Below, in pieces: positions 4,054-63,915 of a stretch of 64,000 bases of DNA (the first letter of the stretch is position 1; each line of letters opens with the position of its first letter). A program made the position numbers and the translations under genes. Origin of the DNA: a virus; IMG/VR virus record IMGVR_UViG_3300025669_002088, positions 61,742 to 125,741 of that record, one strand, 5' to 3'. The notes under the pieces are model-generated. The model was given only the letters and a program-made list of their open reading frames with translations, made no database searches and was not told the origin of the DNA.

Positions 4054-4055
4054 AA

Positions 4056-7163: not shown

Positions 7164-8585
7164 CTAGAATGTAACAGGCATCAAGTTTGAGGCTGTGCCG
7201 ATCCTTGGTAACCCAAGTGCCTCGGTAGTAAGCTCCCGGCCCAACGGTAAGGGCTCGGATGACGGTTGCTCTTGCCGTCCGAATCCCAAGGAACTGGTCC
7301 GCTTAATACGGAATCGCTCTCTTAGCACTCGTTTTACGCCTCGTGGGTGATCATTAGCTTTGATGTGTTCGTCTCCAGAACGTCTGAGCACACCAGCGCT
7401 TCCTACCCAATCAGCATGAGCTTTCCTGCCGCACGAGCGGCAACGGAACCTTATTGAACTTCGGTTTCCTCGATGAACATAACCACAAGAAGGACACTCC
7501 TGCGACGTGTAAGCAGGGTTCACTTTCTTTGTTGGAGCTTTCCTTTCCAAGTTGATCTGTAACGCCCTGTAAGCAAACCTTTTTTGACCCCTACAACCTC
7601 GAAGATCGAGATCTTCGACCACGAACACCGTCTCGGGATGACGAACGATAAGGGTGTTTACCACACGACCCGTCTCTGTCTTGATCAACCCACTCAATTT
7701 GCTCTCAAGGTGATCCAACTTTGGGCTGTTATCCTTCAAATCCTGCCGTTGGCGATTTGCTCGAAGATTTCTGACACGAGCGTAGAGTTTGTCGAACTTA
7801 GGTTTGACGTGTTCACCGTAAATCACTCCATCTGATGTAGCTGCAAGGACGTTCAGACCAACGTCAACGCCCAACTTAGGCCAACCTTCCTGTGCTTCGG
7901 GAACAACCCATTCAGCCTTACTGACCGCCTCAAAGCGCCAAAAGCCTCGCTTGGTTTTGCGGGCTGAGATCCCTTTGCTGACCTGATCAGCTTGTTGAAT
8001 GTAAAGATTCCCAACGAGAGGCAACCAGACGGACTTACGAGCTTCTAACGAAGACACCCTCAACCAGAAGTCCCCGAGAGGGGCTTTAGATGCGTCCTCC
8101 AACCGAGCCGTCATCTCCGACAACCGCATGGGCAGGTTGTCCCTTACGATAGGCTTATTACCTCCGTAGGTGTCCAACAGGGTGTGGTAGGCGTCGAGAT
8201 GGTCTTGGGTGATAAACTTCCAGGGCTTACTGATGGCTTTTAATCCGATGACACAGAGTGCTTTGGCGTCCTGTTCGGTGAGGGTACCCTCGTGCTTGAG
8301 GTTGGTGATAGTCGGTTTCAACTTGCGGGCGTAAGTGGCTTTGGCCCAAGCGCTCACAATTTGGATAGCGTGGTCTCGTGCGATCTTTTCGATTTGGGAC
8401 GTAAGGTTGGTGGCCCGTGGGAAGAACGTTTGTTTGGCGGCTTTCGGGAGATTATAGACCTGCTGGTCAAGCATCGTTTGTACGCAAATGCGGACGTACT
8501 TGACGTATGCTTTGTGTAGGGCTTCCAACTTATCGATCTTGGACTGATTGGTATCCTTGTGAAGTCGGAAGATGCGACACTTCAT
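7164..8585 (-). CDS. tnpB: TnpB, RNA-guided nuclease of an IS605-type element (copy 1)
   Basis: This 473-residue OrfB/TnpB protein has a split RuvC nuclease: Asp241 (G-V-D-V-G), Glu324 (V-V-E-D-L-D) and Asp392 (H-A-D-W). A four-Cys zinc ribbon (Cys364, 367, 382, 385) lies before the last motif, so it looks catalytically complete. In known TnpB systems the guide RNA comes from the 3' end of the gene and adjoining flank. Here the C-terminal tail after about residue 430 is low in structure, as expected where coding sequence overlaps that RNA. No TnpA transposase is present. It appears to interrupt a small phage gene whose pieces flank it. Confidence 0.9.
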   Translation of the reverse strand: MKCRIFRLHKDTNQSKIDKLEALHKAYVKYVRICVQTMLDQQVYNLPKAAKQTFFPRATNLTSQIEKIARDHAIQIVSAWAKATYARKLKPTITNLKHEGTLTEQDAKALCVIGLKAISKPWKFITQDHLDAYHTLLDTYGGNKPIVRDNLPMRLSEMTARLEDASKAPLGDFWLRVSSLEARKSVWLPLVGNLYIQQADQVSKGISARKTKRGFWRFEAVSKAEWVVPEAQEGWPKLGVDVGLNVLAATSDGVIYGEHVKPKFDKLYARVRNLRANRQRQDLKDNSPKLDHLESKLSGLIKTETGRVVNTLIVRHPETVFVVEDLDLRGCRGQKRFAYRALQINLERKAPTKKVNPAYTSQECPSCGYVHRGNRSSIRFRCRSCGRKAHADWVGSAGVLRRSGDEHIKANDHPRGVKRVLRERFRIKRTSSLGFGRQEQPSSEPLPLGRELTTEALGLPRIGTASNLMPVTF

Positions 8586-14224: not shown

Positions 14225-15496
14225 TCAACAATGTTGTAGCAATTTCTTACTTTCATTGTCTTTTATGGTGGCGGGGACTATAGACTCCCGCCCTTCGTCA
14301 AACAAACCATCAGAAGTCCAAAAGAACCCTTTACGATTTATTTGACTTAGCCGTACCCACCATTGGATCTCAAAGAGATCGAGCTTCAAGTTGGAAGCCG
14401 CATTCAAATCAGCATCTATGGTAAAGCCACATTTGCCACATTTGAACGTCTTACCTTTCCTGTTACTCTTACGGACCCAGCCACACTCGCTACACCTCTG
14501 AGACCTAAACTCGTTCGCAACCTCCCGAAAAAGGAAACCTTCCTCCTCAGAGAGACGAACAAGTTTGTCTTTGATCAAAGTATAGCGCCAATGTGACATA
14601 TAGCGTGAACTCCGCTTTGATAAGCGGAGATGCTTGATTTTCTCAAAACGAACTTCTTTCACGTCCTTGAAGTTGAGTTGATTCAAGGACCAATGGATGT
14701 AGTTCTTGCGATGCTCTTGGGTACGACGAAAACCATTCGACCCCTTTTGCTTACGAGCAAGTTTTGCTTGGATCGTTTGGAGGGTATGCCCATGAGGACA
14801 ACGTTTGGTTGCTTCTCCATTTGAGAGAGTCAACGCAGTTGTGATACCTTGGTCTGCACCAACTATCTGACTTCCTGAGGCGCTTTTGTTTGGCACTTCG
14901 TAAATTAGATGTAGTGTGTCCTCAGAGATCCTAACACATACTTTCAGGAGTCCCCTAGTCTGCCACTTGTTAGAGCAACGGGTCTTTTTGATAGGAATTC
15001 TAATGTGTGGGATTCCAAGGGATGAGAGTTGAACAAACAAAAAGATGTCTGTCTCTTGGAAACCCACAAAACGAGAATCTAGTTCCAGATTGATTCCTGA
15101 AGCGTCCGGTTTCACAAGAGGTTGCCGGTCAACCCTTGACTGGAGGTACTGGTACTTCTTACCTTCTCGCTGAAGGTTAGCCAGCACGAAAAGTTGTTTC
15201 CGTCGTTTCTCCGTGGCTGCCTTGAGCATCATAACGGCTTGTTTACCAGCAGCTTGTTGAAGCCTTGCTGATATCTCTGTTGGGAACTGCTTGAGGTACT
15301 TTGTGGGTAGAAGGCTCTTGCCTTTGAAATCCAGTCTGTTTGAGCTTGGGAAAAAGTCCCACGTTGGAAAGCCATTCTCCCATATGTCGTTTAGAATGCG
15401 TTGGACAAAAAGGCGATACTCTCCGATAAGTTCCCCTACCAATCTCACCTTACCTGGGTTTGCAAACCGCAAGCTATGAGCAGAAGACCGAATCAT
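14225..15496 (-). CDS. tnpB: TnpB, RNA-guided nuclease of an IS605-type element (copy 2)
   Basis: This 423-residue protein differs strongly from the copy at 7164. RuvC residues are Asp215 (G-A-D-Q-G), Glu285 (E-V-R-F-E-K) and Asp361/363 (D-A-D-L-N-A-A). The zinc ribbon is Cys335, 338, 353 and 356. All catalytic positions are present. Past residue 375 the reading frame runs through a probable guide-RNA end with a hairpin (GGCGGG/CCCGCC at 14270-14292). The right end abuts the phage promoter of the gene at 14192. No transposase gene accompanies it. Confidence 0.9.
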   Translation of the reverse strand: MIRSSAHSLRFANPGKVRLVGELIGEYRLFVQRILNDIWENGFPTWDFFPSSNRLDFKGKSLLPTKYLKQFPTEISARLQQAAGKQAVMMLKAATEKRRKQLFVLANLQREGKKYQYLQSRVDRQPLVKPDASGINLELDSRFVGFQETDIFLFVQLSSLGIPHIRIPIKKTRCSNKWQTRGLLKVCVRISEDTLHLIYEVPNKSASGSQIVGADQGITTALTLSNGEATKRCPHGHTLQTIQAKLARKQKGSNGFRRTQEHRKNYIHWSLNQLNFKDVKEVRFEKIKHLRLSKRSSRYMSHWRYTLIKDKLVRLSEEEGFLFREVANEFRSQRCSECGWVRKSNRKGKTFKCGKCGFTIDADLNAASNLKLDLFEIQWWVRLSQINRKGFFWTSDGLFDEGRESIVPATIKDNESKKLLQHC

Positions 15497-23297: not shown

Positions 23298-23654
23298 TCA
23301 GTTACCTCTCTTCAGGCACAGTGACTCAGGCAACGGAATGACAGGCGGCTCTTTCGGGGGCCGTTTTTTCGACAACCCACCCAGGTACAATGACATCGCT
23401 TTATGCCAGGGTACCCTCGCCTGTACCGTCACGACCTTGTCCGCAGCATCCCGGCAAACATCAGTCGTAAACTGACCAGCCACGCACACACAATGCTGCT
23501 GGATGAAGATCTCCAGGGAAGCTGCAGGTTGTAGAGCCGCCTGCTCCATGAAGTCCATCTCGGTGCGGTAGACAGCCTCGTCCCGCACGAGACATGTGGA
23601 GGAGCACCCCCACAACAGAGCCGCAGAAATCACGAAGACCACAAAAGTACGCAT
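23298..23654 (-). CDS. Small lipoprotein
   Basis: This 118-residue protein has a short signal sequence with lipobox (L-L-W-G-C, Cys17) and several further Cys residues (C-V-C, C-R-D, C-L). A Pro/Lys-rich segment near residue 100 could span periplasm. An outer-membrane spanin-type lysis role is possible but not shown. Its start lies inside the tail of the IscB reading frame, so the IscB element inserted just upstream of it. Confidence 0.7.
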   Translation of the reverse strand: MRTFVVFVISAALLWGCSSTCLVRDEAVYRTEMDFMEQAALQPAASLEIFIQQHCVCVAGQFTTDVCRDAADKVVTVQARVPWHKAMSLYLGGLSKKRPPKEPPVIPLPESLCLKRGN

Positions 23655-24892
23655 CTGACTTCCTCCTGTAAGGCACTAGGACAAAAAAGCCCAAGCACAC
23701 CTATATACACTAGACCTTTTGGTCGCCATAGCAACTGGGTTTTACTATATGACACAGGGAAGTTACTATCCCCATGTGTTCGTAAGGTTAGGCCACGCTC
23801 CTTTAAGCTCCGTACCGACCCTACAACCACTCCCCGACTACGATGTCTTGCTCGTACCAAGTCCCAATGCCGAAACCCCATACGTTCATGACATTTCTTC
23901 GTTGGGTTGTCCTCCCACACCTTAGTTCGACGGGGGATTATAGTGAACATCCTTTCCGTGATTGTCGGTCTGTATGCTCGGCACACCATCGCTACAGCAT
24001 CGAGATCGTGCGCCTTGGGCAACTTTAAGGTGTCACGCCACAACTTAGTCATCCACCCACAACAAGTGTTCACAGCGAGACCGCATGAACGCAACCCTTC
24101 ACGCAGGTACTTCTTTCCTGCTTGTAAATGAGCAGGGTAGAGGAACCGCTTGGGTCTGGCAGTTAGCACCCACAGCCCATCGTGAAGTTCCTTGTGGCAA
24201 GTTCTACACAGGGTAAGGCCGTTGCTCGGGGAGTTCCCACCACCCACACTCTTTGGCTTGATGTGATGTGCTTGGAGCCACTCAGTAGAGCTGCAACGTG
24301 TGCATTTGTAACGATCCCGCCAGAGTACCTTGGCACGGAAGTTCCGACCCTCGTATTCCGACTGTTGGAACTCTGCACCAACCAACTTCCTGCCTGCCGC
24401 CATACTGCTAATGTCAAACTGCCCCTCTTCAACAACAGCCTTGGTGATGTGAAGAACCTTCCCAAGATCTCTAATCACTCGAAGTATGCTATCCTTCTTC
24501 TGTCGAATAGTCGGGGACAAAAAACCCTTCCTTCCTCGGTTCAGGAATCGAGCTGGGCGATGTCGGAGCTTCCGATTTCTTCTTGTTCGTCGATACGCTG
24601 CCCGTTGCGTCATCTTCCTTGTAACATCCTGACGTAACCGGACAGTACCTCGGAAAACTACTTCCTTGGTATGCTCGTTTACCATCGCTATGCCAACGTG
24701 TTTTGCCCCATCATCGATGCCAACAGTAAAAGTTCCAACAGGATTCTCAACAACACGGGCCAATTGGATTGTAAAGGGTACCACTTGGTGTACCTGGGCA
24801 CGACCAGCTTGCACTAACTTTCTAGCCCGTGCCGGATGAGTGGGAAGTAACTGCTTCCCGTCAGCGTCTATCACAAAGACTTTCTGTGTCAT
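23630..24892 (-). CDS. iscB: IscB, RNA-guided HNH/RuvC nuclease, copy 1
   Basis: This 420-residue protein has the IscB order. The N-terminal PLMP-like part reads L-L-P-T-H-P-A-R-A-R. RuvC-I Asp60 lies in G-I-D-D-G-A. An Arg-rich bridge helix follows (R-R-T-R-R-N-R-K-L-R-H-R). RuvC-II Glu lies in V-V-E-E-G-Q-F-D. The HNH has H209/H210, N224 and H237. RuvC-III is A-H-D-L-D-A. All catalytic residues are present. IscB, the presumed ancestor of Cas9, cuts DNA using an omegaRNA encoded upstream, and such a conserved 240-nt segment lies directly upstream. The last 23 or so residues, after G-L-V-Y, are not shared with the other copies; they come from flanking phage DNA. Confidence 0.93.
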   Translation of the reverse strand: MTQKVFVIDADGKQLLPTHPARARKLVQAGRAQVHQVVPFTIQLARVVENPVGTFTVGIDDGAKHVGIAMVNEHTKEVVFRGTVRLRQDVTRKMTQRAAYRRTRRNRKLRHRPARFLNRGRKGFLSPTIRQKKDSILRVIRDLGKVLHITKAVVEEGQFDISSMAAGRKLVGAEFQQSEYEGRNFRAKVLWRDRYKCTRCSSTEWLQAHHIKPKSVGGGNSPSNGLTLCRTCHKELHDGLWVLTARPKRFLYPAHLQAGKKYLREGLRSCGLAVNTCCGWMTKLWRDTLKLPKAHDLDAVAMVCRAYRPTITERMFTIIPRRTKVWEDNPTKKCHERMGFRHWDLVRARHRSRGVVVGSVRSLKERGLTLRTHGDSNFPVSYSKTQLLWRPKGLVYIGVLGLFCPSALQEEVRCVLLWSS

Positions 24893-25132
24893 TTAAGACA
24901 CCTCCCGAAGGGAAATTGTTGTCCTCGGCAAAGTTTCCGGGCCTCTGGTTGTATCGAAGATGTTACCAACCATTTCAGGTCTTGTTTCGTCCTTTGATAC
25001 CGCTAGAGCCTGGAACTGGACACATTCCAGGGTAGCTGTCCTTAAGGACAACCCGGAGAACGTAGGAGTCTCACCCTTAGTTCCACCATTTTTATTCTGG
25101 TGGTTCACCTTAACACTCCTCCTTAGCCTCAA
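24893..25132 (-). ncRNA. IscB omegaRNA, copy 1
   Basis: This is the 240 nt between iscB and the point where similarity to copy 2 stops (25132). Stems include CCTGGAA/TTCCAGG (25009-25015 with 25025-25031, 9-nt loop), CCACCA/TGGTGG (about 25083-25104) and a TGTCC/GGACA stem (about 25037-25050). The first stem is CCTGAGA/TCTCAGG in copy 2, a compensatory change. The guide should be the unique sequence just upstream of the boundary (25133 onward, read on the minus strand). Confidence 0.8.
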
Positions 25133-25191
25133 AGCCGCATGTCCAGTTTTGTCTACCTTTCACGAAGCTCCTGTCCGTTGTACCATACCCA

Positions 25192-25515
25192 TCAAGGTGC
25201 CTTGTAGGGGGGTGGTTTCCACCGGCCCCCACGTTGAACACCAGCCGTATTCATTACGTTTTGTAGACGGTCGGCTGCGACCACGTCATCCAGGATCATT
25301 TCCGAAGCCGCAGTCTCTGTGAGCCTGTCTAATCGGGCCTGCTCTTCCGGTAACAAACTGGGGTAAAGACGATTGTAGGAGGCTCGGGCACTGGGGATGT
25401 GCAATAGAAACTGATTGATGTAGTGGTCGCTCAGTCTCAACGGGTTGGTGACGTCGCCATCAACCCCTTTAAGCATGTTCTGCCCTACATTGTCTATCCA
25501 GAAGTCCTCTGCCAT
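25192..25515 (-). CDS. Unknown small protein next to IscB element
   Basis: This 107-residue soluble protein has helices around S-A-R-A-S-Y-N-R-L-Y and L-L-P-E-E-Q-A-R-L-D-R-L. It is not recognised. Its stop is about 60 bp from the edge of the omegaRNA, so the element did not truncate it visibly. A ribosome site is not obvious. Confidence 0.55.
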   Translation of the reverse strand: MAEDFWIDNVGQNMLKGVDGDVTNPLRLSDHYINQFLLHIPSARASYNRLYPSLLPEEQARLDRLTETAASEMILDDVVAADRLQNVMNTAGVQRGGRWKPPPYKAP

Positions 25516-26841: not shown

Positions 26842-26876
26842 GAGGGGGTTGCTAACAGTGGGTTAAAACAGCCTTT

Positions 26877-27186
26877 AATAGGACATTAGTCCTTGCGAGG
26901 TCAAGAATCCTTGACTTCTTTTCTCTTTCTTCTTATCGTGATTGGCGTAAGGGCGATAGCCAAGCTCTTCAAAGTGTTCTTTGGAATTTTGGATTCGGTG
27001 GTTGGTGAGAAAAGATCTCACCGTAAAATCCAAATCGTTGAGAGACTTAATGTCTTTTGCGATTGTTTTTTGACCGTCAGTTCGACGGTGACAGCCTGTG
27101 GAGAGGGGAGCGCTGGCTTGGTCCTAGATCAAGTGAAACTGTCTTCTGTGAAGCAGGAACCTAACACCAATCGGGTGTGTCCTTGA
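26877..27186 (+). mobile_element. tnpB-less IS605-type relic with preserved 3' guide-RNA end
   Basis: No intact gene lies here, but the region is full of hairpins. AGGAC/GTCCT is at 26880-26893. A long one has outer arms TTTGGATT/AATCCAAA (26988-27034) and inner arms GGTGAGA/TCTCACC. ACCGTC/GACGGT is at 27073-27089 and ACACC/GGTGT at 27164-27178. The + frame across 27080-27185 reads T-V-T-A-C-G-E-G...V-K-L-S-S-V-K-Q-E-P, the tail seen in many TnpB proteins where the gene overlaps the guide RNA. I read it as a deleted IS605/IS200 element that kept its ends and RNA scaffold. Confidence 0.5.
26900..26925 (+). terminator. Hairpin with T-rich tail after the exonuclease gene
   Basis: GTCAAG (26900-26905) pairs with CTTGAC (26910-26915) and is followed by TTCTTTTCT. 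It could terminate the exonuclease transcript. It may equally be part of the left end of the IS605 relic that starts here. Confidence 0.45.
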
Positions 27187-27191
27187 TTGGG

Positions 27192-27497
27192 TCAGTTTAG
27201 GAGAACGGTGTCCTCGTTCAGGCCCAGCAACCCCATGCGCTCACGCTTCTGAGATGCCGACTGGATCTCGGTGAGCCTTTCCACTCGGACGCCCGCCCGT
27301 TCCTTGATCAACTCCTCCACGGCCATCACAGCCTCCTCCGTTCCGTGCATCTTCCACACAGTACGCCCCCCGTCATGATGGAGGGTCGGTGTCATGGTCA
27401 TCTCGATGATGAAGGAGTTACCGCCAGTTATCACCAGCGTCCAAACACGGGAAGGCTCTACCCTTAGGGGAGCCACCCTGCTGATCTCGTTTGCCAT
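27192..27497 (-). CDS. Small unknown protein
   Basis: This 101-residue protein starts at an ATG behind GGAGGAGAC. It looks like a compact beta-sheet domain (W-T-L-V-I-T-G-G-N-S-F-I-I-E-M) with a C-terminal helix. No family was recognised. The IS605 relic ends only a few bases beyond its stop. Confidence 0.65.
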   Translation of the reverse strand: MANEISRVAPLRVEPSRVWTLVITGGNSFIIEMTMTPTLHHDGGRTVWKMHGTEEAVMAVEELIKERAGVRVERLTEIQSASQKRERMGLLGLNEDTVLLN

Positions 27498-35379: not shown

Positions 35380-36339
35380 ATGGGCAAACGAAAGAACAGG
35401 AGCAGCGGGAAGAGCCGACCCCAGAGCAAAAGGATCGATCCTCGTACTGTCCCGCCGGACCCACCACCGCCCAAACCCATCCCACTGGGGAAGATCCGGG
35501 TCTTGGCCGAGTTCAAAGAGAAGGGCAAACCTCTGGCCATCGGGAAGGCACGACGGAGTCTGGCTCCTCGGTACCGGGGCTACATTTGTTCCGCAGCCTG
35601 GGTGGTCAAGAACACCGAGGAACAGGAGGCCCTCTTTGCGGAGGTGACACAGGAAGTCGGGAACGTCCGATCCCTTTACCACGGGACCACCTCGCGCAAC
35701 ATCGGGGACATCACCCGAAAGGGCTTGCAGACGGGCCGAGGCGGTTGCCTGTTCGGTTCCGGCATCTACATGGGATCCCCCACCAAGGCCTTCGGATACA
35801 CGGGCTGGGGCTGGCGATACCGTGGCGGAGATGCCTGCTATATCCTCCAGGTGGATGCGGCCCTGGGAAAAGTGCTGGAGTGCCCGTCCCCGACAAAGTA
35901 CACCCTGGACAAGGTACAAGCCGAAGGGTTCCACTCGGTAGCCGGGGTGGCGGGCCATACCTCAAGCTGGGGTGGGAAGCTCAAACACGATGAGAATGTC
36001 GTCTACTCACCCGATCAGGTGATCGTGCGGTACATCTTCGAGTACCAAAGGACCGAAGAATATGCTCCTCCGAAACCGCATAAGGGCAAATGCGGGGTGG
36101 TGCGAAAAAAGGACGTCGCCACGAACAAAAGGAACAGGGCCTTCGCAGATATCATCAGCGCCCAAGCCTGTGGGAATGTCGCTTCGATTAAGGTGTGGCT
36201 GGATGATGGAACAACCCGGTGGATCTGCAACACCTGTCTCAGGGAACTCCGGTTGAAAATCGGGACTAAAGTTCTGGTGGAACCAGGGACGTTGGACAAG
36301 GGTCGCCACGTCAAACGGATCATCAGGAAGGTTTCCTAG
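35380..36339 (+). CDS. PARP-like ADP-ribosyltransferase
   Basis: This 319-residue protein starts at an ATG behind AGGAGAGG. Residues 95-220 match the PARP catalytic fold: L-Y-H-G-T (His101, NAD binding), F-G-S-G-I-Y-M (Tyr130) and D-E-N-V-V-Y-S-P-D-Q-V (Glu205, catalytic). The H-Y-E triad is therefore complete, as in eukaryotic PARPs and some bacterial ARTs. It would transfer ADP-ribose from NAD. The basic N terminus and a C-terminal domain with a C-x-x-C (C-N-T-C-L-R) may bind nucleic acid. Phages are known to use ARTs to reprogram host proteins, though PARP-type ones are rare. Copy 4 of the phage promoter motif drives it. Confidence 0.85.
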   Translation: MGKRKNRSSGKSRPQSKRIDPRTVPPDPPPPKPIPLGKIRVLAEFKEKGKPLAIGKARRSLAPRYRGYICSAAWVVKNTEEQEALFAEVTQEVGNVRSLYHGTTSRNIGDITRKGLQTGRGGCLFGSGIYMGSPTKAFGYTGWGWRYRGGDACYILQVDAALGKVLECPSPTKYTLDKVQAEGFHSVAGVAGHTSSWGGKLKHDENVVYSPDQVIVRYIFEYQRTEEYAPPKPHKGKCGVVRKKDVATNKRNRAFADIISAQACGNVASIKVWLDDGTTRWICNTCLRELRLKIGTKVLVEPGTLDKGRHVKRIIRKVS

Positions 36340-36887
36340 AGTTTCACCAGCGACCCATCACACAATACGTTCAGCCAGTCATAACGGGCATCCAGGGGAT
36401 GCTCGCTGTAGGGCTTCCCACACGTTTGACAGACGACATCCCCAGCGGCGTGGCTGTACTCCGGCGGGTCTTCAATACCCTGGACCTGGAAGAAGAAGTC
36501 GGAACTGCCACCTTGTGTGACGGTCTCCTTGGCGGGACACCCCTCCACACAATCCCAGATCTCCACATAACCTGCACTATCCACGATGGTGCCCTGTTCT
36601 ACAACGTCAAGGGTAGACATCGGACGACGCCCCTTCAGTTTGCACTGTGGGGTGTGCTCCAACACAAGGTTGGCGGGCCAACGTCCAACGACGGGACGAG
36701 CAGCACCCTCCTTCATTCCGACCCCCTTGTCGTTCCAGTTCTTGAGGCCACCCCCACGTCCACCCCAGCCCGCTTCGTCTGAACCGATCCGACAACCGTC
36801 GATGTTCAGACCTCCTGTGCCATGTGCCAGAACGTTCTTGGCCACGGACCCGATGAGGGGCTTTCTTGCAACATGGATAACGATCAT
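36336..36887 (-). CDS. Split methyltransferase array: recognition module B6
   Basis: This 183-residue protein begins M-I-V-I-H-V-A-R-K-P-L-I-G-S-V and continues G-T-G-G-L-N-I-D-G-C-R and G-R-W-P-A-N-L-V-L, the part that follows the DPPY half in one-piece beta-class methyltransferases. The DPPY motif and the SAM-binding motif are absent. Unlike other B modules it has a C-terminal four-Cys/His site (C-Q-T-C...C-D) instead of the usual S-R-F-F-K end. It probably contributes to target recognition in a complex with A and C proteins. It is the last gene of the operon and overlaps B5 by ATGA. Confidence 0.75.
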   Translation of the reverse strand: MIVIHVARKPLIGSVAKNVLAHGTGGLNIDGCRIGSDEAGWGGRGGGLKNWNDKGVGMKEGAARPVVGRWPANLVLEHTPQCKLKGRRPMSTLDVVEQGTIVDSAGYVEIWDCVEGCPAKETVTQGGSSDFFFQVQGIEDPPEYSHAAGDVVCQTCGKPYSEHPLDARYDWLNVLCDGSLVKL

Positions 36888-37483
36888 GATCGACCTCCGA
36901 TCCTTTTGAAGTATCTCGATGCTCCCCCGGTATCCACATAACCGCCAGGGACTCTCTTGAAGCGCCAGTCCTCTCGGGAGGGATCAAGATGCTCCCCTGC
37001 CCCCTCTTCTACTCTAACCTGGCTCGTGGAAACACCACTCTGTCCATCCAGGGCCTGAACGGGGCAACCCGGAGCACAATGCCACGTCTCCACCGGCTCC
37101 TTCCCATCCGCATCCGTGTGGTTCACCTTCTCGTAACCAGGAGGTTTGTGGTTGAACTGGATGTGACCATCCGCTTGTTCCTTGACCGTGTGCCCCTTGA
37201 AACCATCCACCATCACCGTCCCCAACCGAACGCAGTCAGGGTGATGCTGGAGGATCAGGTTAGCAGGCCAACGTCCCGCAGAGGATGTCGCCCCACTCCC
37301 CGTGGAGCCTCCAGTGATCCGCCAGTTCTCTCGATCTTCCCGGTCCTTGTACTCCCGCTCCTTCCCCACCTCAGTGGTTCGGAGGCGACAGGCACCAATG
37401 TTCAGACCACCCGTTCCGTATCCCATCACAGTTTGGGCCACAGTGCCCTCCAAGGGCTTCCTGGCAACGGTGATCACGATCAT
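36884..37483 (-). CDS. Split methyltransferase array: recognition module B5
   Basis: This 199-residue protein opens with M-I-V-I-T-V-A-R-K-P-L-E-G-T-V and G-T-G-G-L-N-I-G-A-C-R, then has G-R-W-P-A-N-L-I-L, a variable Asp/Lys-rich middle, C-A-P-G-C-P and the end G-G-A-S-R-Y-F-K-R. In fused enzymes this last motif (S-R-F-F-Y-C-A-K) leads into the SAM-binding part; here the gene stops. It is probably a target-recognition subunit. It overlaps both neighbours by four bases. Confidence 0.78.
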   Translation of the reverse strand: MIVITVARKPLEGTVAQTVMGYGTGGLNIGACRLRTTEVGKEREYKDREDRENWRITGGSTGSGATSSAGRWPANLILQHHPDCVRLGTVMVDGFKGHTVKEQADGHIQFNHKPPGYEKVNHTDADGKEPVETWHCAPGCPVQALDGQSGVSTSQVRVEEGAGEHLDPSREDWRFKRVPGGYVDTGGASRYFKRIGGRS

Positions 37484-38136
37484 CGCTTCACCTGTTTGAA
37501 GAACCTGGATGCCCCACCGACGTCACCATACCCTGGGGACTGTCCAGCGAAGCAGTAGCAGGCACCCGTGCCCCCTGAGATCTTGTCCCGATCCGCCCCA
37601 CGATCTACAGGAGGAGACTTGTGAACACCGCTCTGGGCATCCAACATCAAAACGGGGCACCCTAGATCACAATGCCAGTCAGGAACCGTCTCCATGCCCT
37701 CTGCGTCGGAATACCCATAGATTCCGGGAGCGTCTCTTTTCAATCCTACTGCCCCCACCTTCGTTGGGAGAGATCCGGCGACCGTATTGACGAGAGAAGC
37801 ATTGTTGGTCCCCTTTACCCTCTTTTGGCCCCGGCAAGTACAATCCACTGAATGTTGGATGATCAGGTTGGCGGGCCACCGACCCAGTGAACGAGTCCGC
37901 TCGATGCTCTCCCGCTGGGCTTGTTTAAACCTCTCATCATTGGACCGACTCCAGAAGGTCAGGTCTCGGTCTCCTCCCGTCCGGTTGTCCACAGAGGAGA
38001 TCAACGGGGTCACGAATGACTCGCCCTCGGTAGAGATGCGGCAACCGTCAATGTTCAGTGCGCCCGTTCCATGCTCCTGCACAGTTTGGGCTACAGTACC
38101 ACTCAGAGGTTTACGGGCTACGGTGATGATAATCAT
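37480..38136 (-). CDS. Split methyltransferase array: recognition module B4
   Basis: This 218-residue protein begins M-I-I-I-T-V-A-R-K-P-L-S-G-T-V...G-T-G-A-L-N-I-D-G-C-R. G-R-W-P-A-N-L-I-I follows and the end is G-G-A-S-R-F-F-K-Q-V-K-R. The insert between G-R-W-P-A-N and the C-terminal end differs from the other B modules, as expected if it sets sequence specificity. There is no catalytic or SAM motif. It is preceded by a small unrelated gene that separates it from A6. Confidence 0.78.
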   Translation of the reverse strand: MIIITVARKPLSGTVAQTVQEHGTGALNIDGCRISTEGESFVTPLISSVDNRTGGDRDLTFWSRSNDERFKQAQRESIERTRSLGRWPANLIIQHSVDCTCRGQKRVKGTNNASLVNTVAGSLPTKVGAVGLKRDAPGIYGYSDAEGMETVPDWHCDLGCPVLMLDAQSGVHKSPPVDRGADRDKISGGTGACYCFAGQSPGYGDVGGASRFFKQVKR

Positions 38137-38423
38137 CGGTGTTTGTACTCCATCTGACCTTCTTGCCAGTAGACTCCCGCCCGGATTAGCTCCACCAAGG
38201 CGTTGAGTTCCTTTCCGTCCAACCCGATGCTGGCCTTCTTCAAAATGTCAACCATGTCCGGTCGTCCGAGTCGTCCTAACTCGGCGTAGATGTCGTCTAG
38301 TGGGGCAAAGGTTGGGAGCGATTTGATCTGCTGGTCCCATTCCGCAGCCGTCTCGTGGACGAGTTCTGAACCTCGGGACGTATAGGAAACGACCCACTCC
38401 ATGTCACTAAGATCTGGCATCAT
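38133..38423 (-). CDS. Small unknown protein inside the methyltransferase array
   Basis: This 96-residue, acidic, helical protein starts at an ATG behind GGAGG and overlaps A6 and B4 by four bases each. It has no resemblance to the A or B modules and no recognised motif. It may be a passenger or an accessory subunit. Confidence 0.65.
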   Translation of the reverse strand: MMPDLSDMEWVVSYTSRGSELVHETAAEWDQQIKSLPTFAPLDDIYAELGRLGRPDMVDILKKASIGLDGKELNALVELIRAGVYWQEGQMEYKHR

Positions 38424-39229
38424 GGCCTCCTTGCAACCAGGAAGGGCTCCCAGGCGGGTTTTAGGGCTGTACCCCTACCCACCCATCGGATGGCGTCAGA
38501 AGTCACAGGGACGCCACCCTCTTTGTCATAGTACCCCTGCTCCCGAGCGAGCCTCATCCAGGGTCGATCCCCACCCTCTATGTCCTCGCCCCCGGCGATA
38601 CTCTTCGGGTTCCGACCGGCACCACTACCCACGATCCGAACCATCGCTCGTGTCGCTCCGTGGTGTTTGTCCAAGGCCCGTGAGACGTCGTGGGACTTCG
38701 GGAAGCCGGATCCATAAACCCACGCTTCGATCCGCAGCATCTCGAATCCCACGGCAACCATCGCTGCGGCCAACCGATGGAACGTCCGAGACCCACTGAA
38801 GATCTTAGCGATCCCGCCGGGATGAAGGATTCTGTAGACCTCCTGAAGCCACTCCTCGTGCCACGCTTGCATTGCGGCGACGTGCTCTAGCGTCCGGTTC
38901 TCCCACTCGGGCGTGGGACACACGCAGGGGTTCCCGCTGAACTTGTAGTGTCCGCACTTGGTGCAGTGATCATTCCGCTTCGGGATGTAGGAGGGTAGCT
39001 CACCCATCCTGGCCCCGAAGTCACCGCCGACGCCGGACCCGTCCCCGATGAGTTTCCGTTCCGTGCCTTTCCAGCGCTGCTGATTGCGGCGGGGTTCGAG
39101 CTTGTCCCACTCCCGACCCATGAACTCCAAGCCATAGGGGGGGTCACTGACGAGCGTCCCGATGGAACAATCAGGAAGAGCCCTCATCCTCTCTACACAG
39201 TCCCCGAGTTGAAGTTGCACTAGAGACAT
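38420..39229 (-). CDS. Split methyltransferase array: catalytic module A6
   Basis: This 269-residue protein starts at an ATG behind AAGGAG. It has L-G-D-C-V near the start, motif IV S-D-P-P-Y-G-L-E-F-M, a four-Cys zinc-like insert (C-T-K-C...C-V-C), L-H-P-G-G, a F-H-R-L-A helix and Y-G-S-G-F-P-K. It ends G-T-A-L-K-P-A-W-E-P-F-L-V-A-R-R-P. This is the N-terminal half of an N6-adenine methyltransferase (D-P-P-Y flips and holds the base). The SAM-binding motif I is missing. It must work with other subunits. Confidence 0.82.
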   Translation of the reverse strand: MSLVQLQLGDCVERMRALPDCSIGTLVSDPPYGLEFMGREWDKLEPRRNQQRWKGTERKLIGDGSGVGGDFGARMGELPSYIPKRNDHCTKCGHYKFSGNPCVCPTPEWENRTLEHVAAMQAWHEEWLQEVYRILHPGGIAKIFSGSRTFHRLAAAMVAVGFEMLRIEAWVYGSGFPKSHDVSRALDKHHGATRAMVRIVGSGAGRNPKSIAGGEDIEGGDRPWMRLAREQGYYDKEGGVPVTSDAIRWVGRGTALKPAWEPFLVARRP

Positions 39230-39849
39230 GCCTGTCTCCTTGCTACAACCAACGACTCCCAGGCCGGACGAAGAGATGTACCGTAACCGTCAAAGGTCCG
39301 GGCTATATCGCTCCGAGCAACCGTGACTGGAACGTCCCCCTGGTGGTAGTTGTTCCAACGCTCCCAATAGGCTGCTCCCCCGTGTAATCCCTCATTCTCT
39401 TTCGTCCGACCCGCAGAAATGACCCGACGGTTGTGGCCTACGACAGGACGAGTTTTTTCGCTGACAGCCAGAGCCACCGAGTTGCTTTTTCCCGTCAACA
39501 CCTCTGAGTCTACAGCCTTGGAGACACTCAGTGATTTGGGGAAACCGCTACCATATAGCCAGGCCTCCACATGTAGGATCTCAAAGGACTGAAAGGACAT
39601 CGCAACTATCAAATGATGCATCAGCTTAGGGGCAGTGAACACCTTGATGAGACCCCCCGGTTGGAGCACCCTAAATGCCTCCCCTAACCACTGTGAGTGC
39701 CATCCCTGTGTCCCGTCTCGGAAGTGATCCCACTCCTGATTCAAAAAACCAAGGCCGTAAGGTGGATCACAGACCACAACCCCCACAGACTCGTCAGGAA
39801 GCTCCTGCATCAGAGTAACGCAGTCCCCGAGTTGGTATTGGATGATCAC
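39220..39849 (-). CDS. Split methyltransferase array: catalytic module A5
   Basis: This 209-residue protein uses a GTG overlapping the A4 stop (GTGA), behind AGGGAG. It has V-C-D-P-P-Y-G-L-G-F-L, L-Q-P-G-G-L-I-K-V-F and Y-G-S-G-F-P-K, and ends L-R-P-A-W-E-S-L-V-V-A-R-R. It lacks the Cys insert of A1, A3 and A6 and is the most diverged A module (G-F-L-N-Q instead of E-F-M-G). No motif I is present. It overlaps A6 by ten bases. Confidence 0.8.
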   Translation of the reverse strand: MIIQYQLGDCVTLMQELPDESVGVVVCDPPYGLGFLNQEWDHFRDGTQGWHSQWLGEAFRVLQPGGLIKVFTAPKLMHHLIVAMSFQSFEILHVEAWLYGSGFPKSLSVSKAVDSEVLTGKSNSVALAVSEKTRPVVGHNRRVISAGRTKENEGLHGGAAYWERWNNYHQGDVPVTVARSDIARTFDGYGTSLRPAWESLVVARRQACL

Positions 39850-40517
39850 AGCGGTTTTCTCCCTACCAGGAAGGGTTCCCACGCAGGCTTGAGCGCTGTG
39901 TTGTACCCAGCATAGCTCTGGGCCTGGGGGGAGGTCGGGGCCGTGATGTCCCACTGCTGACCGACAGTGTCTTCCTGCTCCCACCACATCGGCTGGGGAC
40001 AGCGACCTTTGCGTTGCCCTACCGCCACTACAGTGCGCTCAACCCCAAGATGCTTATCCAAGGCACGGGGCACGTCGAGGCCCTTCGGGAAACCTGAACC
40101 ATAGTCCCAGATCTCCAGACGGAGGATCTCCAATCCAGCCTCGGTCATCGCTCCAGCGAGCCTGTGGAAGGTCCGGGTGGCACTGAATATCTTGGCGATC
40201 CCTCCTGGCTGAAGGATGCGGTGGACTTGCTGGAGCCACTGAAGGTGCCACGCCTGCATCGCCCGCTGGGAATCCAACGTCAGATCCAACGCAGGTTTGC
40301 CCGCATGGATGCCGTGATTCATCCCCCTCGTAGAACGAGAGGTGGAGGACTCGGATGTGTTCGGACGGGAAGCGCTCCCCCGCATGTCTAACTTGTCCCA
40401 GTCCTCACCCATGAACTCCAGCCCATAAGGAGGATCGCTGACCACCGCCCCGATGGAGCAATCTGGGAGGGTCTTCATCCGCTCTACACAGTCCCCCAGT
40501 TGAAGCTGTACGATCAT
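39846..40517 (-). CDS. Split methyltransferase array: catalytic module A4
   Basis: This 223-residue protein starts at the ATG overlapping the FmdB-like stop (ATGA). It shows S-D-P-P-Y-G-L-E-F-M-G, L-Q-P-G-G-I-A-K-I-F, F-H-R-L-A-G-A-M and Y-G-S-G-F-P-K, and ends L-K-P-A-W-E-P-F-L-V-G-R-K-P-L. The final G-R-K-P-L duplicates the A-R-K-P-L with which B modules begin, marking where the ancestral gene was cut. No motif I or HPTVKP is present. Confidence 0.82.
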   Translation of the reverse strand: MIVQLQLGDCVERMKTLPDCSIGAVVSDPPYGLEFMGEDWDKLDMRGSASRPNTSESSTSRSTRGMNHGIHAGKPALDLTLDSQRAMQAWHLQWLQQVHRILQPGGIAKIFSATRTFHRLAGAMTEAGLEILRLEIWDYGSGFPKGLDVPRALDKHLGVERTVVAVGQRKGRCPQPMWWEQEDTVGQQWDITAPTSPQAQSYAGYNTALKPAWEPFLVGRKPL

Positions 40518-40693
40518 GAGGAGTATCCGTCGTTTGCCCAGCCGCCGCCTGCCAGCTTGAAGGTGGACTGGGAGACCTTCTTCTGGACCTGGTCCCCCCC
40601 GCACTTGGGACAGGGAAGGGTCGGGTCGTCTACTTTGACAAGCTGTTCAAAATCATGCTCGCAATCAGGGCAGCTATATTCGTACATTGGCAT
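40514..40693 (-). CDS. FmdB-family zinc-ribbon protein
   Basis: This 59-residue protein matches the FmdB family end to end: M-P-M-Y-E-Y-S-C-P-D-C near the start, L-P-C-P-K-C-G-G and the C-terminal F-K-L-A-G-G-G-W. Four Cys form a zinc ribbon. FmdB proteins were named as putative regulators but their role is unclear. It sits between modules B3 and A4 of the methyltransferase array and overlaps both, so it may belong to the complex. Confidence 0.85.
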   Translation of the reverse strand: MPMYEYSCPDCEHDFEQLVKVDDPTLPCPKCGGDQVQKKVSQSTFKLAGGGWANDGYSS

Positions 40694-41138
40694 GGGAATC
40701 ACTCACCTGTTTGAAAAACCGAGCCACCGAGCCTGTGTCCCCTACTCGGGCGTTTGCGCCGAAACCATTGAACAACCAATCGGGATGCTGACTCAAACCG
40801 TACTGAGGTGCCCTTTGGCTTCCTGCACTGTGAGCACCCACAAGCGCCCCCTGGTGGGACATCTCAGGCACGGGACAATCCCCCTCACAGTCTACTCCGC
40901 AGCCAGGTGCATGGGAGAGGATCAGGTTAGCAGGCCAGCGGCCCGTGAAGGTCTCGGGGTGGTAGGAGTGCCCGGCACCCCCGCCGAAGGGCTTAGAGCC
41001 GTCATCCCACCTGTTGACCGTAATCGGTTCCGAGCCGACCCGACAAGCATCGATGTTCAAAGCGCCTGTGCCCCATCGTTGCACGTTGGTGGCAACGGAA
41101 CCTTCTAAAGGCTTCCTGGCGACGGTGATCACGATCAT
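40674..41138 (-). CDS. Split methyltransferase array: recognition module B3
   Basis: This 154-residue protein begins M-I-V-I-T-V-A-R-K-P-L-E-G-S-V...G-T-G-A-L-N-I-D-A-C-R and has G-R-W-P-A-N-L-I-L and C-G-V-D-C-E-G-D-C, ending near A-R-F-F-K-Q-V plus a short extra tail. Its second half is nearly identical to that of B2, while the stretch between C-R and G-R-W-P differs completely. This is the pattern expected if that stretch sets specificity after duplication. Confidence 0.8.
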   Translation of the reverse strand: MIVITVARKPLEGSVATNVQRWGTGALNIDACRVGSEPITVNRWDDGSKPFGGGAGHSYHPETFTGRWPANLILSHAPGCGVDCEGDCPVPEMSHQGALVGAHSAGSQRAPQYGLSQHPDWLFNGFGANARVGDTGSVARFFKQVSDSHANVRI

Positions 41139-41587
41139 CGCTTCACCTGTTTGAAGAACCGAGCCGCAGAGCCTGTATCCCCTATGCGGGCATTTGCACC
41201 GAAACCATTGAACAACCAATCGGGATGCTGACTCGGACCATATTGCGGAGCCTTCTGACTTCCTGCACTGTGGCTTCCCACAAGGTCTCCCTGGCGAGCC
41301 ATCTCGGACACGGGACAACCTCCTTCACAGTCTACTCCGCAACCGGGTGCATGGGAGAGGATCAAGTTAGAAGGCCAACGTCCCAACTGTGATGGTTGAG
41401 ACATCCTGCCGTTTCTACCGTCTGCGTCAAAGGGAGCATTTCCAGCCGCTCTGTTCCATTGTGGGACGGAGGGTGGAACACCAGTAACTCGACAACCGTC
41501 GATGTTCAGCCCCCCGGCACTCCATGTGAGAACCGTAGCAACAACTGTCCCGTCCAGGGGCTTCCTGGCGACTGTGATGATGATCAC
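41135..41587 (-). CDS. Split methyltransferase array: recognition module B2
   Basis: This 150-residue protein starts at a GTG overlapping the A3 stop (GTGA). It begins with I-I-I-T-V-A-R-K-P-L-D-G-T-V and G-G-L-N-I-D-G-C-R, has G-R-W-P-S-N-L-I-L and ends A-R-F-F-K-Q-V-K-R. The C-terminal half is a near copy of B3. There are no catalytic motifs. Confidence 0.8.
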   Translation of the reverse strand: MIIITVARKPLDGTVVATVLTWSAGGLNIDGCRVTGVPPSVPQWNRAAGNAPFDADGRNGRMSQPSQLGRWPSNLILSHAPGCGVDCEGGCPVSEMARQGDLVGSHSAGSQKAPQYGPSQHPDWLFNGFGANARIGDTGSAARFFKQVKR

Positions 41588-44115: not shown

Positions 44116-44124
44116 AATGTCCCC

Positions 44125-56130: not shown

Positions 56131-56207
56131 TAGTGCCCACCTACGTTCACACGGCCTTGGTTATCGTTTCGGCCACAGTCCTAGAGTATCCCCCACGAAA
56201 CACTTGG

Positions 56208-57419
56208 TCAAACGTGTCCAAGTGCGCTTATGTACACCAAACCTTTCGGTCGCCAGAGCAACCGGGTTTTGCTGTAAGCCACAGGGAAAGCGGAATCCCA
56301 TCCTGTACGTAGCGTCAGGCAATGCTCCTTCAGGCTTTGCACGGACCCTATAACAACTCTACGAGTTCGGTGCTTGGCACGCACCAAATCCCAATGTCGA
56401 AATCCCTTACGCTCATTGCACTTCTTCGTCGGATGGTTCTCCCACACCTTGGTTCGACGAGGGATAACTATGTATGCCGTTTTCGTAATTGTCGGTCTGT
56501 AGCTCCGGCACACCATCGCCACAGCATCGAAATCGTGCGCCTTGGGTATGCCTATGGTATTACGCCATAACTTAGTCATCCACCCACAACAGGTGCTCAC
56601 GGCAAGGCCACATGAACGCAGTCCCTCACGCAGGTACTTCTTTCCTGCTTGTAAATGAGCAGGGTAGAGGAACCGCTTGGGTCTGACAATCAGTGCCCAC
56701 AACCCATCGTGAAATTCCTTATGACAAGTTCTACACAAGGTAATACCATTGCTCGGGGAGTTTCCCCCACCCACACTCTTTGGTTTGATGTGATGCGCCT
56801 GGAGCCACTCGGTAAAACCACAACGTGTGCATTTGTAACGGTCCCGCCAGAGTACCTTAGCTCGAAAGTTCCGACCCTCGTACTCTGACTGTTGGAACTC
56901 TATGCCAACCAACTTCCTGCCCGCCGCCATGCTGCTGAGGTCGAATTGCCCCTCTTCAACAACAGCCTTAGTGATGCAGAGAACTTTTCCTAAGTCCTTA
57001 ACTACCCGAAGTATGCTATCCTTCTTCTGTCGAATAGTTGGGGGCAGGAAACCCTTCCTTCCTCGGTTCAAAAACTTGGCTGGGCGATGTCGGAGCTTCC
57101 GATTTCTTCTTGTTCGTCGATACGCTGCCCGTTGTGTCATTTTTCGCTTAACATCCTGACGTAACCGAACAGTACCCCTGAAGACTACTTCCTTGGTGTG
57201 CTCGTTTACCATCGCTATGCCAACGTGTTTCGCTCCATCATCGATACCAACAGTGAAGGCTCCAACCGGATTCTCAACAACACGGACCAGTTGGATCGTA
57301 AAGGGCACCACTTGATGTACCTGGGCACGACCAGCTCGTAGTAGTTTTCTAGAGCGTGCTGGGTGAGTGGGGAGTAACTGCTTCCCGTCAGCGTCAATCA
57401 CAAAGATTTTCTGTGTCAT
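56208..57419 (-). CDS. iscB: IscB, RNA-guided HNH/RuvC nuclease, copy 2
   Basis: This 403-residue protein is very close to copy 1 throughout. The RuvC-I Asp (G-I-D-D-G-A), the Arg-rich helix, E-E-G-Q-F-D, the HNH motif (A-H-H-I-K-P-K-S...H-K-E-F-H) and the RuvC-III A-H-D-F-D-A are all intact. After G-L-V-Y the last residues I-S-A-L-G-H-V come from the flank. Joining them to the interrupted gene upstream gives a continuous frame, so they are probably the original C terminus of that gene. The omegaRNA lies directly upstream. Confidence 0.93.
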   Translation of the reverse strand: MTQKIFVIDADGKQLLPTHPARSRKLLRAGRAQVHQVVPFTIQLVRVVENPVGAFTVGIDDGAKHVGIAMVNEHTKEVVFRGTVRLRQDVKRKMTQRAAYRRTRRNRKLRHRPAKFLNRGRKGFLPPTIRQKKDSILRVVKDLGKVLCITKAVVEEGQFDLSSMAAGRKLVGIEFQQSEYEGRNFRAKVLWRDRYKCTRCGFTEWLQAHHIKPKSVGGGNSPSNGITLCRTCHKEFHDGLWALIVRPKRFLYPAHLQAGKKYLREGLRSCGLAVSTCCGWMTKLWRNTIGIPKAHDFDAVAMVCRSYRPTITKTAYIVIPRRTKVWENHPTKKCNERKGFRHWDLVRAKHRTRRVVIGSVQSLKEHCLTLRTGWDSAFPVAYSKTRLLWRPKGLVYISALGHV

Positions 57420-57659
57420 TTAAGACACCTCCCGAAGGGAAATTGTTGTCCTCGGCAAAGTTTCCGGGCCTCTGGTTGTATCGAAGATGTTACCAACCAT
57501 TTCAGGTCTTGTTTCGTCCTTCGATACTGCTAGAGCCTGAGACTGGACCAATCTCAGGGTAGCTGTCCTTAAAGACAACCCGGAGAACATAGGAGTCTCA
57601 CCCTTAGTTCCACCATTTTTATTCTGGTGGTTCACCTTAACACTCCTCCTTAGCCTCAA
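57420..57659 (-). ncRNA. IscB omegaRNA, copy 2
   Basis: This is homologous to 24893-25132 along its full length. The stem CCTGAGA/TCTCAGG (57536-57542 with 57552-57558) keeps the 9-nt loop although four stem bases differ from copy 1. A second stem changes to a pair that is a G-U wobble only if the minus strand is the RNA. Similarity ends at 57659; the guide is expected from the adjacent SLOG-like gene. Confidence 0.8.
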
Positions 57660-58071
57660 CCTCGATCATTGCACCGGCTGTTTGGCCGGAAAGGTGACCG
57701 AGGCCGTTCACACGGATGACCTTTCGGTCTGCCGCAAGGATCTCCAAGACCAGGCTTTTCACGCTGATCGACCCATCCCAAAACACCACCGCAACGTCAC
57801 AAGACTGAATCAGCAATTGCCTGCTGGAGACTCTACCCCAAATCCAATCTCGGATCCGCCCCCCGAAAGTGGGTTCTCCTCTAAGCTCCTCAGAGTCCCA
57901 TACCTCCAGCCCAAGCCGTTTGCCACAACTCCGCACACAGGAGGATTCCGGCATTTTGGCGTCCGTGAGGAGTACCTTGGGGGGGTCTTTACGGACCACT
58001 CGTCGGAGTAGCCTTTCAATAAGGCGTTTGTCGATCACACACCCCTCATGGAACAGGATAGCCATCTTCAT
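57637..58071 (-). CDS. SLOG/DUF2493-like protein, C terminus replaced by the IscB element
   Basis: In this 144-residue protein, the segments K-V-L-L-T-D-A-K...L-G-L-E-V-W and C-D-V-A-V-V-F-W-D-G-S-I-S-V-K-S have the layout of SLOG/DprA-like nucleotide-binding folds (D-A-x-I-x-F-W-D-G-x-S). Its last codons (about E-A-K-E-E-C) are encoded by the omegaRNA segment, so the element inserted at the 3' end. Joining M-I-E-V to the Y-I-S-A-L-G-H-V tail of iscB copy 2 rebuilds a plausible native end. SLOG proteins bind nucleotide-derived ligands. Confidence 0.6.
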   Translation of the reverse strand: MKMAILFHEGCVIDKRLIERLLRRVVRKDPPKVLLTDAKMPESSCVRSCGKRLGLEVWDSEELRGEPTFGGRIRDWIWGRVSSRQLLIQSCDVAVVFWDGSISVKSLVLEILAADRKVIRVNGLGHLSGQTAGAMIEVEAKEEC

Positions 58072-62724: not shown

Positions 62725-63915
62725 TCAGACATAAACAAGACCCCCAAAGCGCCACAAAACTTGGGATTTGTTATACGAAACAGGAAAGTTACTGTCCCAA
62801 TTCGTTCGTAAAGTAAGGGTAGTCTTCTTTAGACTCCTTATGGACCCAACAACTACACCACGAGTACGATGACGAGCCTTCACCAAATCCCAATGTCTAA
62901 AACCCCGAAACTCAAAACGCTTTTTCGTGGGATTGTTTTCCCATACCTTCGTTCTCTTCGGGATAACCAAAAAAGACCTTAGACACAAGTAGGGCTTGCA
63001 GCCCCGACAAACCATAGCAACGGCATCTAAGTCATGTGCTTTCTCCAACTCAAGACATTTCCGCCACTTGGCAGTCATCCACCCGAAACAAACCTCGATT
63101 CTTAAGCCAATCCCATGAAGAAGCTCCCTCAGGTAATTCTTACCTGCTTGTAGATGAGCAGGATACCTAAAAGGACGAGGCTTCTTTGTCAGCACCCACA
63201 ATCCTTCATGAAGATCCGCATGACATGTCCCACAAAGAGTAAGCCCATTTTGAGGGGAATCCCCACCACCTCGACTCTTAAACTGAATGTGGTGGGCTTG
63301 AAGGCGATCAGAGGTACCACAATGTTGACACTTGTATTTGTCTCGCCACAGCACCTTAGCTCGAAAACCCCCCTTACTGTATTCAGATTTCTGAAATTCT
63401 GCCCCTGTCAATTTTCGTCCTGCAACCAAACTACTTGTGTCAAACTGACCTTCTTCAATCGTAGCCTCGATGATGTTCAACCTCTTTTTGAGATCGACAA
63501 GCACTCTCAAAATGGATTCTTTCTTCTGTCGGATCGTTGGGGGCAGAAAGCCCCTTCTACCCCTGTTCCTGAATCTCGGTGCCCGAAAGCGTAACCGACT
63601 TCTCCTCGTTCGTCGATACGCTGCCCGTTGTGTCATTTTCCTCGAAACGTCTTGTCTCAAACGAATTGTGCCTCGGAAAACAACTTCTTTCTGATGCCTG
63701 TTTACAACTGCAATACCAACGTGTTTCGCTCCATCATCGATACCAACAGTGAAGGCTCCAACAGGATTCTCAACAACACGGCTCAATTGAATCGTAAACG
63801 GCACCACTTGGTGTACCTGGGCACGACCAGCTCGCAACAATTTTCTAGAGCGTGCTGGGTGAGTGGGAAGTAGCTGCTTCCCGTCAGCGTCAATCACAAA
63901 GATTTTCTGTGTCAT
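62725..63915 (-). CDS. iscB: IscB, RNA-guided HNH/RuvC nuclease, copy 3
   Basis: This 396-residue protein has all catalytic motifs (G-I-D-D-G-A; E-E-G-Q-F-D; A-H-H-I-Q-F-K-S...C-H-A-D-L-H; A-H-D-L-D-A). The first 70 residues are nearly identical to copies 1 and 2, but from about residue 70 on it is clearly diverged. That is a mosaic, as if the 5' part had been homogenised by recombination. It ends G-L-V-Y-V, just upstream of the holin-like gene. Its omegaRNA runs off the right edge. Confidence 0.92.
   Translation of the reverse strand: MTQKIFVIDADGKQLLPTHPARSRKLLRAGRAQVHQVVPFTIQLSRVVENPVGAFTVGIDDGAKHVGIAVVNRHQKEVVFRGTIRLRQDVSRKMTQRAAYRRTRRSRLRFRAPRFRNRGRRGFLPPTIRQKKESILRVLVDLKKRLNIIEATIEEGQFDTSSLVAGRKLTGAEFQKSEYSKGGFRAKVLWRDKYKCQHCGTSDRLQAHHIQFKSRGGGDSPQNGLTLCGTCHADLHEGLWVLTKKPRPFRYPAHLQAGKNYLRELLHGIGLRIEVCFGWMTAKWRKCLELEKAHDLDAVAMVCRGCKPYLCLRSFLVIPKRTKVWENNPTKKRFEFRGFRHWDLVKARHRTRGVVVGSIRSLKKTTLTLRTNWDSNFPVSYNKSQVLWRFGGLVYV

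What the first reader, a model, noticed from the sequence alone, without database searches (positions are those of the whole stretch)
23630..25132. Phage-borne IscB-omegaRNA systems with compensatory base changes in the RNA
Three intact IscB genes each have the same RNA-like segment upstream. Between copies 1 and 2 the stem CCTGGAA/TTCCAGG becomes CCTGAGA/TCTCAGG, with the pairing kept, and another stem changes to a G-U pair valid only on the iscB strand. This is direct sequence evidence for a selected RNA structure and its orientation. The sequences next to the RNA boundary differ, so each copy would have its own guide.
Basis: partly seen in the sequence, partly recalled or inferred. Interest (0 to 1): 0.8.

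Follow-up and report, generated by a model that had tools for sequence, protein, structure and literature searches.

The report
Three phage-borne IscB–ωRNA elements
A huge bacterial virus carries three copies of a known kind of small RNA-guided DNA-cutting enzyme (IscB, a Cas9 ancestor), each behind its own guide RNA; the RNA's folded shape is clearly preserved by selection, but the system itself is of a known type.

Summary
All three ORFs pass NCBI's curated IscB cut-off (266-281 bits against 175). The segment upstream matches the Rfam ωRNA family HEARO as a divergent member (40-42 bits, E 2e-7 and 6e-7, below the gathering score of 83). The compensatory stem change and the G-U pair are real. 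In 7 of 7 further homologues, found with a pattern that left those positions free, the stem still pairs. The known ωRNA pseudoknot is present and co-varies.

Three corrections. Copy 3's RNA is cut by the contig end, but an overlapping contig shows it whole. Copies 2 and 3 have almost identical RNA beside diverged proteins (recombination), so the compensatory change is one event, not several. The guides lie upstream of it and do differ.

Removing each element between its predicted ends gives plausible gene junctions and implies insertion at Shine-Dalgarno-like GGRGG. No TnpA or serine recombinase was found in either contig. IscB/HEARO in viral genomes was already reported in 2022. New member of a known kind.

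The parts
23667..25171 (-). IscB element copy 1 (omegaRNA scaffold + iscB + right end), 1505 bp, ends inferred
   Evidence: alignment of copies and junction analysis
25172..25187 (-). predicted 16-nt guide of copy 1 (TATGGTACAACGGACA)
   Evidence: inferred: sequence directly 5' of the element; unique in the contigs examined
25131..25171 (-). guide-adaptor hairpin of copy 1, homologous to copy 3 and L017
24913..25128 (-). omegaRNA scaffold of copy 1, nexus stem to pseudoknot tail (HEARO RF02033 match 24913-25219, 41.9 bits)
24921..24924 (-). GGAC tail that pairs with the hairpin loop GUCC (pseudoknot)
23630..24892 (-). iscB copy 1, 420 aa; its last codons run into the downstream flank
   Evidence: dN/dS 0.11 against copy 2
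56195..57705 (-). IscB element copy 2, 1511 bp, ends inferred
57706..57721 (-). predicted 16-nt guide of copy 2 (GGTCATCCGTGTGAAC), inside a phage gene
   Evidence: inferred
57658..57705 (-). guide-adaptor hairpin of copy 2, unrelated in sequence to that of copies 1 and 3 (-25.0 kcal/mol; 0.7% of random ends do as well)
57440..57655 (-). omegaRNA scaffold of copy 2 (HEARO match 57440-57705, 39.9 bits)
57536..57558 (-). nexus-pseudoknot hairpin of copy 2 (CCUGAGA/UCUCAGG)
56208..57419 (-). iscB copy 2, 403 aa
62702..64000 (-). IscB element copy 3, cut by the contig end; complete as L009:5722-7214 (1493 bp)
62725..63915 (-). iscB copy 3, 396 aa

Best explanation
These are three IscB-omegaRNA (OMEGA/HEARO) elements in a huge tailed phage. 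Each is about 1.5 kb: guide-adaptor hairpin, omegaRNA scaffold with a nexus pseudoknot, iscB ORF, short right end. The RNA made from the iscB strand should start in the flanking phage sequence, so its 5' end (about 16 nt) is the guide. IscB should bind the scaffold and cut DNA that carries the guide sequence next to a target-adjacent motif. In the occupied phage the element separates guide sequence and motif, so self-cutting is avoided; in a co-infecting phage without the element the site would be cut and repaired from the element-bearing copy (homing-like spread or retention). Shown: gene identity, conserved catalytic residues, purifying selection, selected RNA fold, different upstream flanks, no transposase found in the two contigs. 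Inferred: transcription, guide use, the GGRGG-like motif, cleavage, homing.
For: NCBIfam IscB equivalog, 266-281 bits against a cut-off of 175. RRXRR and HNH domains. Residues aligned with the catalytic RuvC D, E and H/D and the HNH H of known IscBs are invariant in all copies (PMC9640706). dN/dS 0.06-0.14. HEARO matches at E 2e-7 and 6e-7 in the right place and on the right strand. Six pairs changed on both sides, 0 in slid controls. Stem kept in 7 of 7 free-pattern homologues and a co-varying pseudoknot. No Y1 TnpA and no serine resolvase in either contig. Taking out the inferred elements gives plausible gene junctions. Copy 1 is absent from its syntenic place in huge phage LR745208.1.
Against: HEARO scores are below Rfam's gathering threshold. 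No closely related empty site was found, so guide plus motif at an uninserted allele was never seen. No expression or cleavage data. Copy 2's adaptor hairpin rests on one sequence.
Confidence: 0.85

Rival explanations
1. IscB domesticated by the phage as a weapon or regulator: the guides target host or rival-phage DNA rather than the element's own empty site.
For: No transposase in the contigs; three copies kept under purifying selection with different upstream sequences.
Against: The predicted guides are continuous with the neighbouring phage genes (in copy 2 the guide is inside a phage ORF), and joined flanks look like native gene junctions, as expected of insertion-derived guides.
Confidence: 0.1
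2. Passive remnants: non-autonomous IS200/IS605-type elements moved by a host TnpA, whose RNA and nuclease no longer matter to the phage.
For: Multi-copy, no TnpA in the two contigs, inverted repeats near the right ends of copies 2 and 3 (sequence).
Against: Purifying selection on all three ORFs and co-variation in the RNA argue against decay.
Confidence: 0.12
3. The upstream segment is only a leader or a protein-coding tail, and its stems are chance.
For: In copy 2 the 5' part is read in frame by the 144-aa ORF 57637-58071.
Against: Covariance-model match, compensatory pairs, co-varying pseudoknot, homologues.
Confidence: 0.02

Closest known systems
IscB-omegaRNA (OMEGA) systems, e.g. OgeuIscB (PMC9640706)
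   Same: RuvC and HNH nuclease of about 400-500 aa, omegaRNA directly upstream on the same strand, guide-adaptor hairpin, nexus stem, central stem, nexus pseudoknot.
   Different: Divergent RNA subfamily (about 40 bits against a gathering score of 83); predicted motif GGRGG-like; three copies in one phage; two unrelated adaptor hairpins.
HEARO nucleases in viral genomes (PMC9755519)
   Same: Same family, already reported from viral genomes, mostly without TnpA nearby.
   Different: The passages of that paper read here do not describe co-resident copies with recombining scaffolds.
HfmIscB (PDB 9k2z)
   Same: Best solved relative, 178.5 bits over residues 5-391.
   Different: Longer chain (540 residues); sequence well diverged.
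Free-standing phage homing endonucleases (LAGLIDADG, HNH)
   Same: Intergenic or gene-end insertion with no transposase; expected to convert empty alleles.
   Different: Target set by an RNA guide, not by the protein.

Membership tests
IscB | Passes the curated IscB family model | tested here: met
   NF040563 at 280.6, 278.3 and 266.7 bits, cut-off 175
IscB | RuvC split by an HNH domain, with catalytic residues | tested here: met
   Pfam RRXRR and HNH; D60/D61, E155/E156, H209/H210, H295 and D298 invariant in the three copies; aligned with HfmIscB
IscB | RNA-guided DNA cleavage | not testable with these tools
   needs biochemistry
HEARO / omegaRNA (RF02033) | Covariance-model match at the gathering score | tested here: not met
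   41.9 and 39.9 bits against 83; E-values of 2e-7 and 6e-7 nevertheless mark a divergent homologue
HEARO / omegaRNA (RF02033) | Position directly upstream of iscB, same strand | tested here: met
HEARO / omegaRNA (RF02033) | Nexus pseudoknot between hairpin loop and 3' tail | tested here: met
   UGUCC/GGACA (c1), GUCC/GGAC (c2, c3), UUGUCC/GGACAA (L017), UGCUCC/GGAGCA (L011)
HEARO / omegaRNA (RF02033) | Guide-adaptor hairpin between guide and nexus | tested here: met
   c1, c3 and L017 homologous, weak energies; c2 unrelated, strong
IS200/IS605 transposon | TnpA (Y1 transposase) with the element | tested here: not met
   no PF01797 match in either contig; absence of TnpA is usual for IscB according to PMC9755519

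The most novel reading that the evidence does not exclude
An RNA-guided homing family adapted to phage genomes: the elements insert at Shine-Dalgarno-like GGRGG motifs between genes, co-resident copies swap the 5' guide-adaptor module and homogenise the common scaffold by recombination, so that one phage holds several guides served by nearly interchangeable scaffolds.
Probability: 0.25. Interest if true: 0.6.

Novelty: new member of a known kind. Interest (0 to 1): 0.36.

Why it matters
It gives a natural case in which several IscB copies with different predicted guides share one genome with no transposase found in the available contigs, so retention by RNA-guided homing in phages becomes testable. 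The GGRGG motif and the replaced adaptor hairpin are concrete predictions that may also interest people who engineer IscB.

Tried and rejected
Rfam at gathering scores gave nothing for the window; the permissive search found HEARO. Protein scans with the iscB genes found no relatives in GTDB genomes and, in IMG/VR, only two contigs carrying copy 3 of what looks like the same phage; a DNA pattern of the pseudoknot hairpin worked better. A pattern on the CCACC hairpin added only chance matches without IscB. Empty-site search: genes next to copies 1 and 2, L017's neighbour (54 loci, none but L017's own with IscB there, too diverged to test the guide), L011's neighbour. Guides against the held contigs and LR745208.1: no exact match other than self; two-mismatch hits are about what chance gives. 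The joined copy-2 gene has no informative relatives, so its restored end is unproven. The idea that copy 2's 5' hairpin is native host-gene sequence is disfavoured, not excluded, by the junction analysis. A first attempt at the hairpin null model failed technically and was redone. An automated pseudoknot-hairpin search had a faulty expression and was replaced.

Full report
What the window is. The window is the last 64,000 bases of a 125,741-bp IMG/VR virus record. DNA polymerase, primase-helicase and helicase genes are present; the polymerase resembles that of the 485-kb uncultured phage LR745208.1 (48% identity over 88% of its length), and gene order is shared over roughly window 25-55 kb. 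A second contig (3300023257_000013, 109 kb) overlaps the last 6,525 bp at 100% identity and continues past the window end. The phage therefore is a jumbo or huge phage of which at least about 228 kb is seen (arithmetic, if both contigs are the same phage).

The proteins. ORFs at 23630-24892, 56208-57419 and 62725-63915, all on the - strand, carry RRXRR and HNH domains and pass NCBI's IscB equivalog model with 280.6, 278.3 and 266.7 bits against a cut-off of 175. The closest solved relative is HfmIscB. The residues in the places of the catalytic D, E and H/D of RuvC and H of HNH (PMC9640706) are invariant in the three copies. dN/dS between copies and with the nearest outside homologue L017 is 0.06-0.14 where it could be computed, so all three are under purifying selection; some dS values are saturated.

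The RNA. A permissive Rfam search finds HEARO (RF02033), the family of omegaRNAs, on the - strand at 24913-25219 (41.9 bits, E 2e-7) and 57440-57705 (39.9 bits, E 6e-7), both under the gathering score of 83. The model's first helix fits badly in copy 1, but nexus stem, central stem, pseudoknot hairpin and 3' tail align. On an alignment of c1, c2, c3 and L017, 98.4% of 256 cells pair, six pairs change on both sides, and no slid version has any such pair. The structure was derived from c2's fold, so the percentage leans towards it; the double changes are less open to that objection.

The compensatory stem. A cleaner test: the pattern used for the collection scan left two positions on each side free. 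In seven homologues outside this phage (L010, L011, L012, L013, L014, L016, L017) both free positions pair in every case, once through G-U. With random letters this has a probability of about 1e-6 (0.375 to the 14th power, my arithmetic, equal base use and independence assumed). HEAROs found independently of the pattern also keep the stem, with arms such as CGTGGGA/TTCCACG, TTCAGGA/TCCTGAA and TCTGAAA/TTTCAGA; two (L004, L007) have one mismatch, and my simple search found no stem in L081. The loop pairs with the 3' tail as in the known nexus pseudoknot, and this co-varies: UGUCC/GGACA, UGCUCC/GGAGCA, GAGCC/GGCUC, UCACC/GGUGA, ACAUCCU/AGGAUGU.

How many events. Copies 2 and 3 have 97-100% identical scaffolds but fall to about 60% identity later in the ORF, whereas copy 3 and L017 stay at about 65-88% throughout. 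dS between copies 2 and 3 is 1.84. The simplest reading is recombination between the copies over the RNA and the 5' end of the gene. The compensatory difference inside this phage is therefore one event, not independent events; the wider homologues carry the weight.

The 5' end. Copy 3, complete in L009, matches copy 1 for about 40 nt more, and L017 partly so. This segment folds into a hairpin that ends right before the nexus stem, the place of the guide-adaptor hairpin of OgeuIscB (PMC9640706). Its arms in c1, c3 and L017 keep pairing with changes such as G-U to A-U and U-G to U-A, though the energies alone are unremarkable (25-35% of random ends do as well). Copy 2 has a different sequence there, with an 11-bp plus 5-bp hairpin ending at the same spot; 0.7% of random ends in the window do as well. 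L011, more distant, has yet another hairpin (1.3%).

Ends and target. c1 and c2 show a GG(A/G)G motif 34-35 nt after the last conserved codon, c3 and L017 at 25-26 nt. Cutting there and at the GG that starts the adaptor hairpin gives elements of 1505, 1511, 1493 and 1511 bp. The joined flanks read as plausible gene junctions: upstream of copy 3 ...ATHNGG followed by TAG and ATG 3 nt on, with GGAGG as ribosome-binding site; copy 2's upstream gene continues to ...VIRVNGGYSRTVAETITKAV; copy 1 joins to ACAGGAGGAAGTCAGATG. This is inference: GGAGG is common before phage genes, restored frames have a sizeable chance probability, the first two bases GG make the exact cut ambiguous, and no homologue of copy 2's gene was found. 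In LR745208.1 the homologues of the genes on either side of copy 1 are adjacent, with no IscB between them, so copy 1 is an accessory insertion. The guides occur exactly only at their own loci in the contigs examined.

Mobility. Neither contig has a Y1 TnpA or serine resolvase match; both are possibly incomplete. Among 40 related huge-phage records none has a full-length IscB of this kind (only HNH-stretch matches), and none of 53 other loci has one at the place where L017 has it. The elements are rare passengers in this phage group.

Verdict. The elements are IscB-omegaRNA systems, a known kind, and HEARO nucleases were reported from viral genomes in 2022 (PMC9755519). What is unusual is the arrangement: three copies in one phage, recombining scaffolds, exchanged adaptor hairpins, and a suggested GGRGG target motif. 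Function rests on family knowledge; nothing here shows transcription or cleavage.

Noticed in passing
window 7164-8585 and 14225-15496 (-): Two TnpB-like nucleases, each with a copy about 91% identical elsewhere in the same record; four TnpB-domain matches in this record and two in the overlapping contig.
   Followed up: partly
window 26846-27208 and L025:3773-4138: A 370-nt segment, 78% identical between two places of the phage; a weak sub-threshold RAGATH-18 match (22.8 bits, E 0.1) inside. Perhaps a TnpB guide-RNA remnant or a small mobile element.
   Followed up: partly
LR745208.1:279245-280432 (-): This relative has an IsrB-like 395-aa ORF (RuvC motifs, no HNH) two genes downstream of the place homologous to copy 1; no HEARO match in that record.
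   Followed up: partly
LR756508.1:377116-377337 (+): A second HEARO RNA (68.9 bits) in this 484-kb phage, where the IscB protein search gave only one gene, next to the first RNA: possible orphan omegaRNA.
   Followed up: no
window 36336-45474 (-): Run of related genes with internal repeats, several matching DNA methylase domains in part.
   Followed up: no
window 1-4100 (+): Tandem helicase-associated (HA) domain repeats in several ORFs.
   Followed up: no
window 4598-5848 (+) and 50557-54738 (-): LAGLIDADG homing endonuclease, and a helicase with a LAGLIDADG-like stretch, possibly an intein.
   Followed up: no
window 57476-64000; L008: Contigs from different samples end exactly in the iscB/RNA repeats (L008 is a 6,525-bp contig with copy 3's gene at one end and copy 2's RNA at the other), which looks like assembly breaks at repeated elements.
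   Followed up: yes
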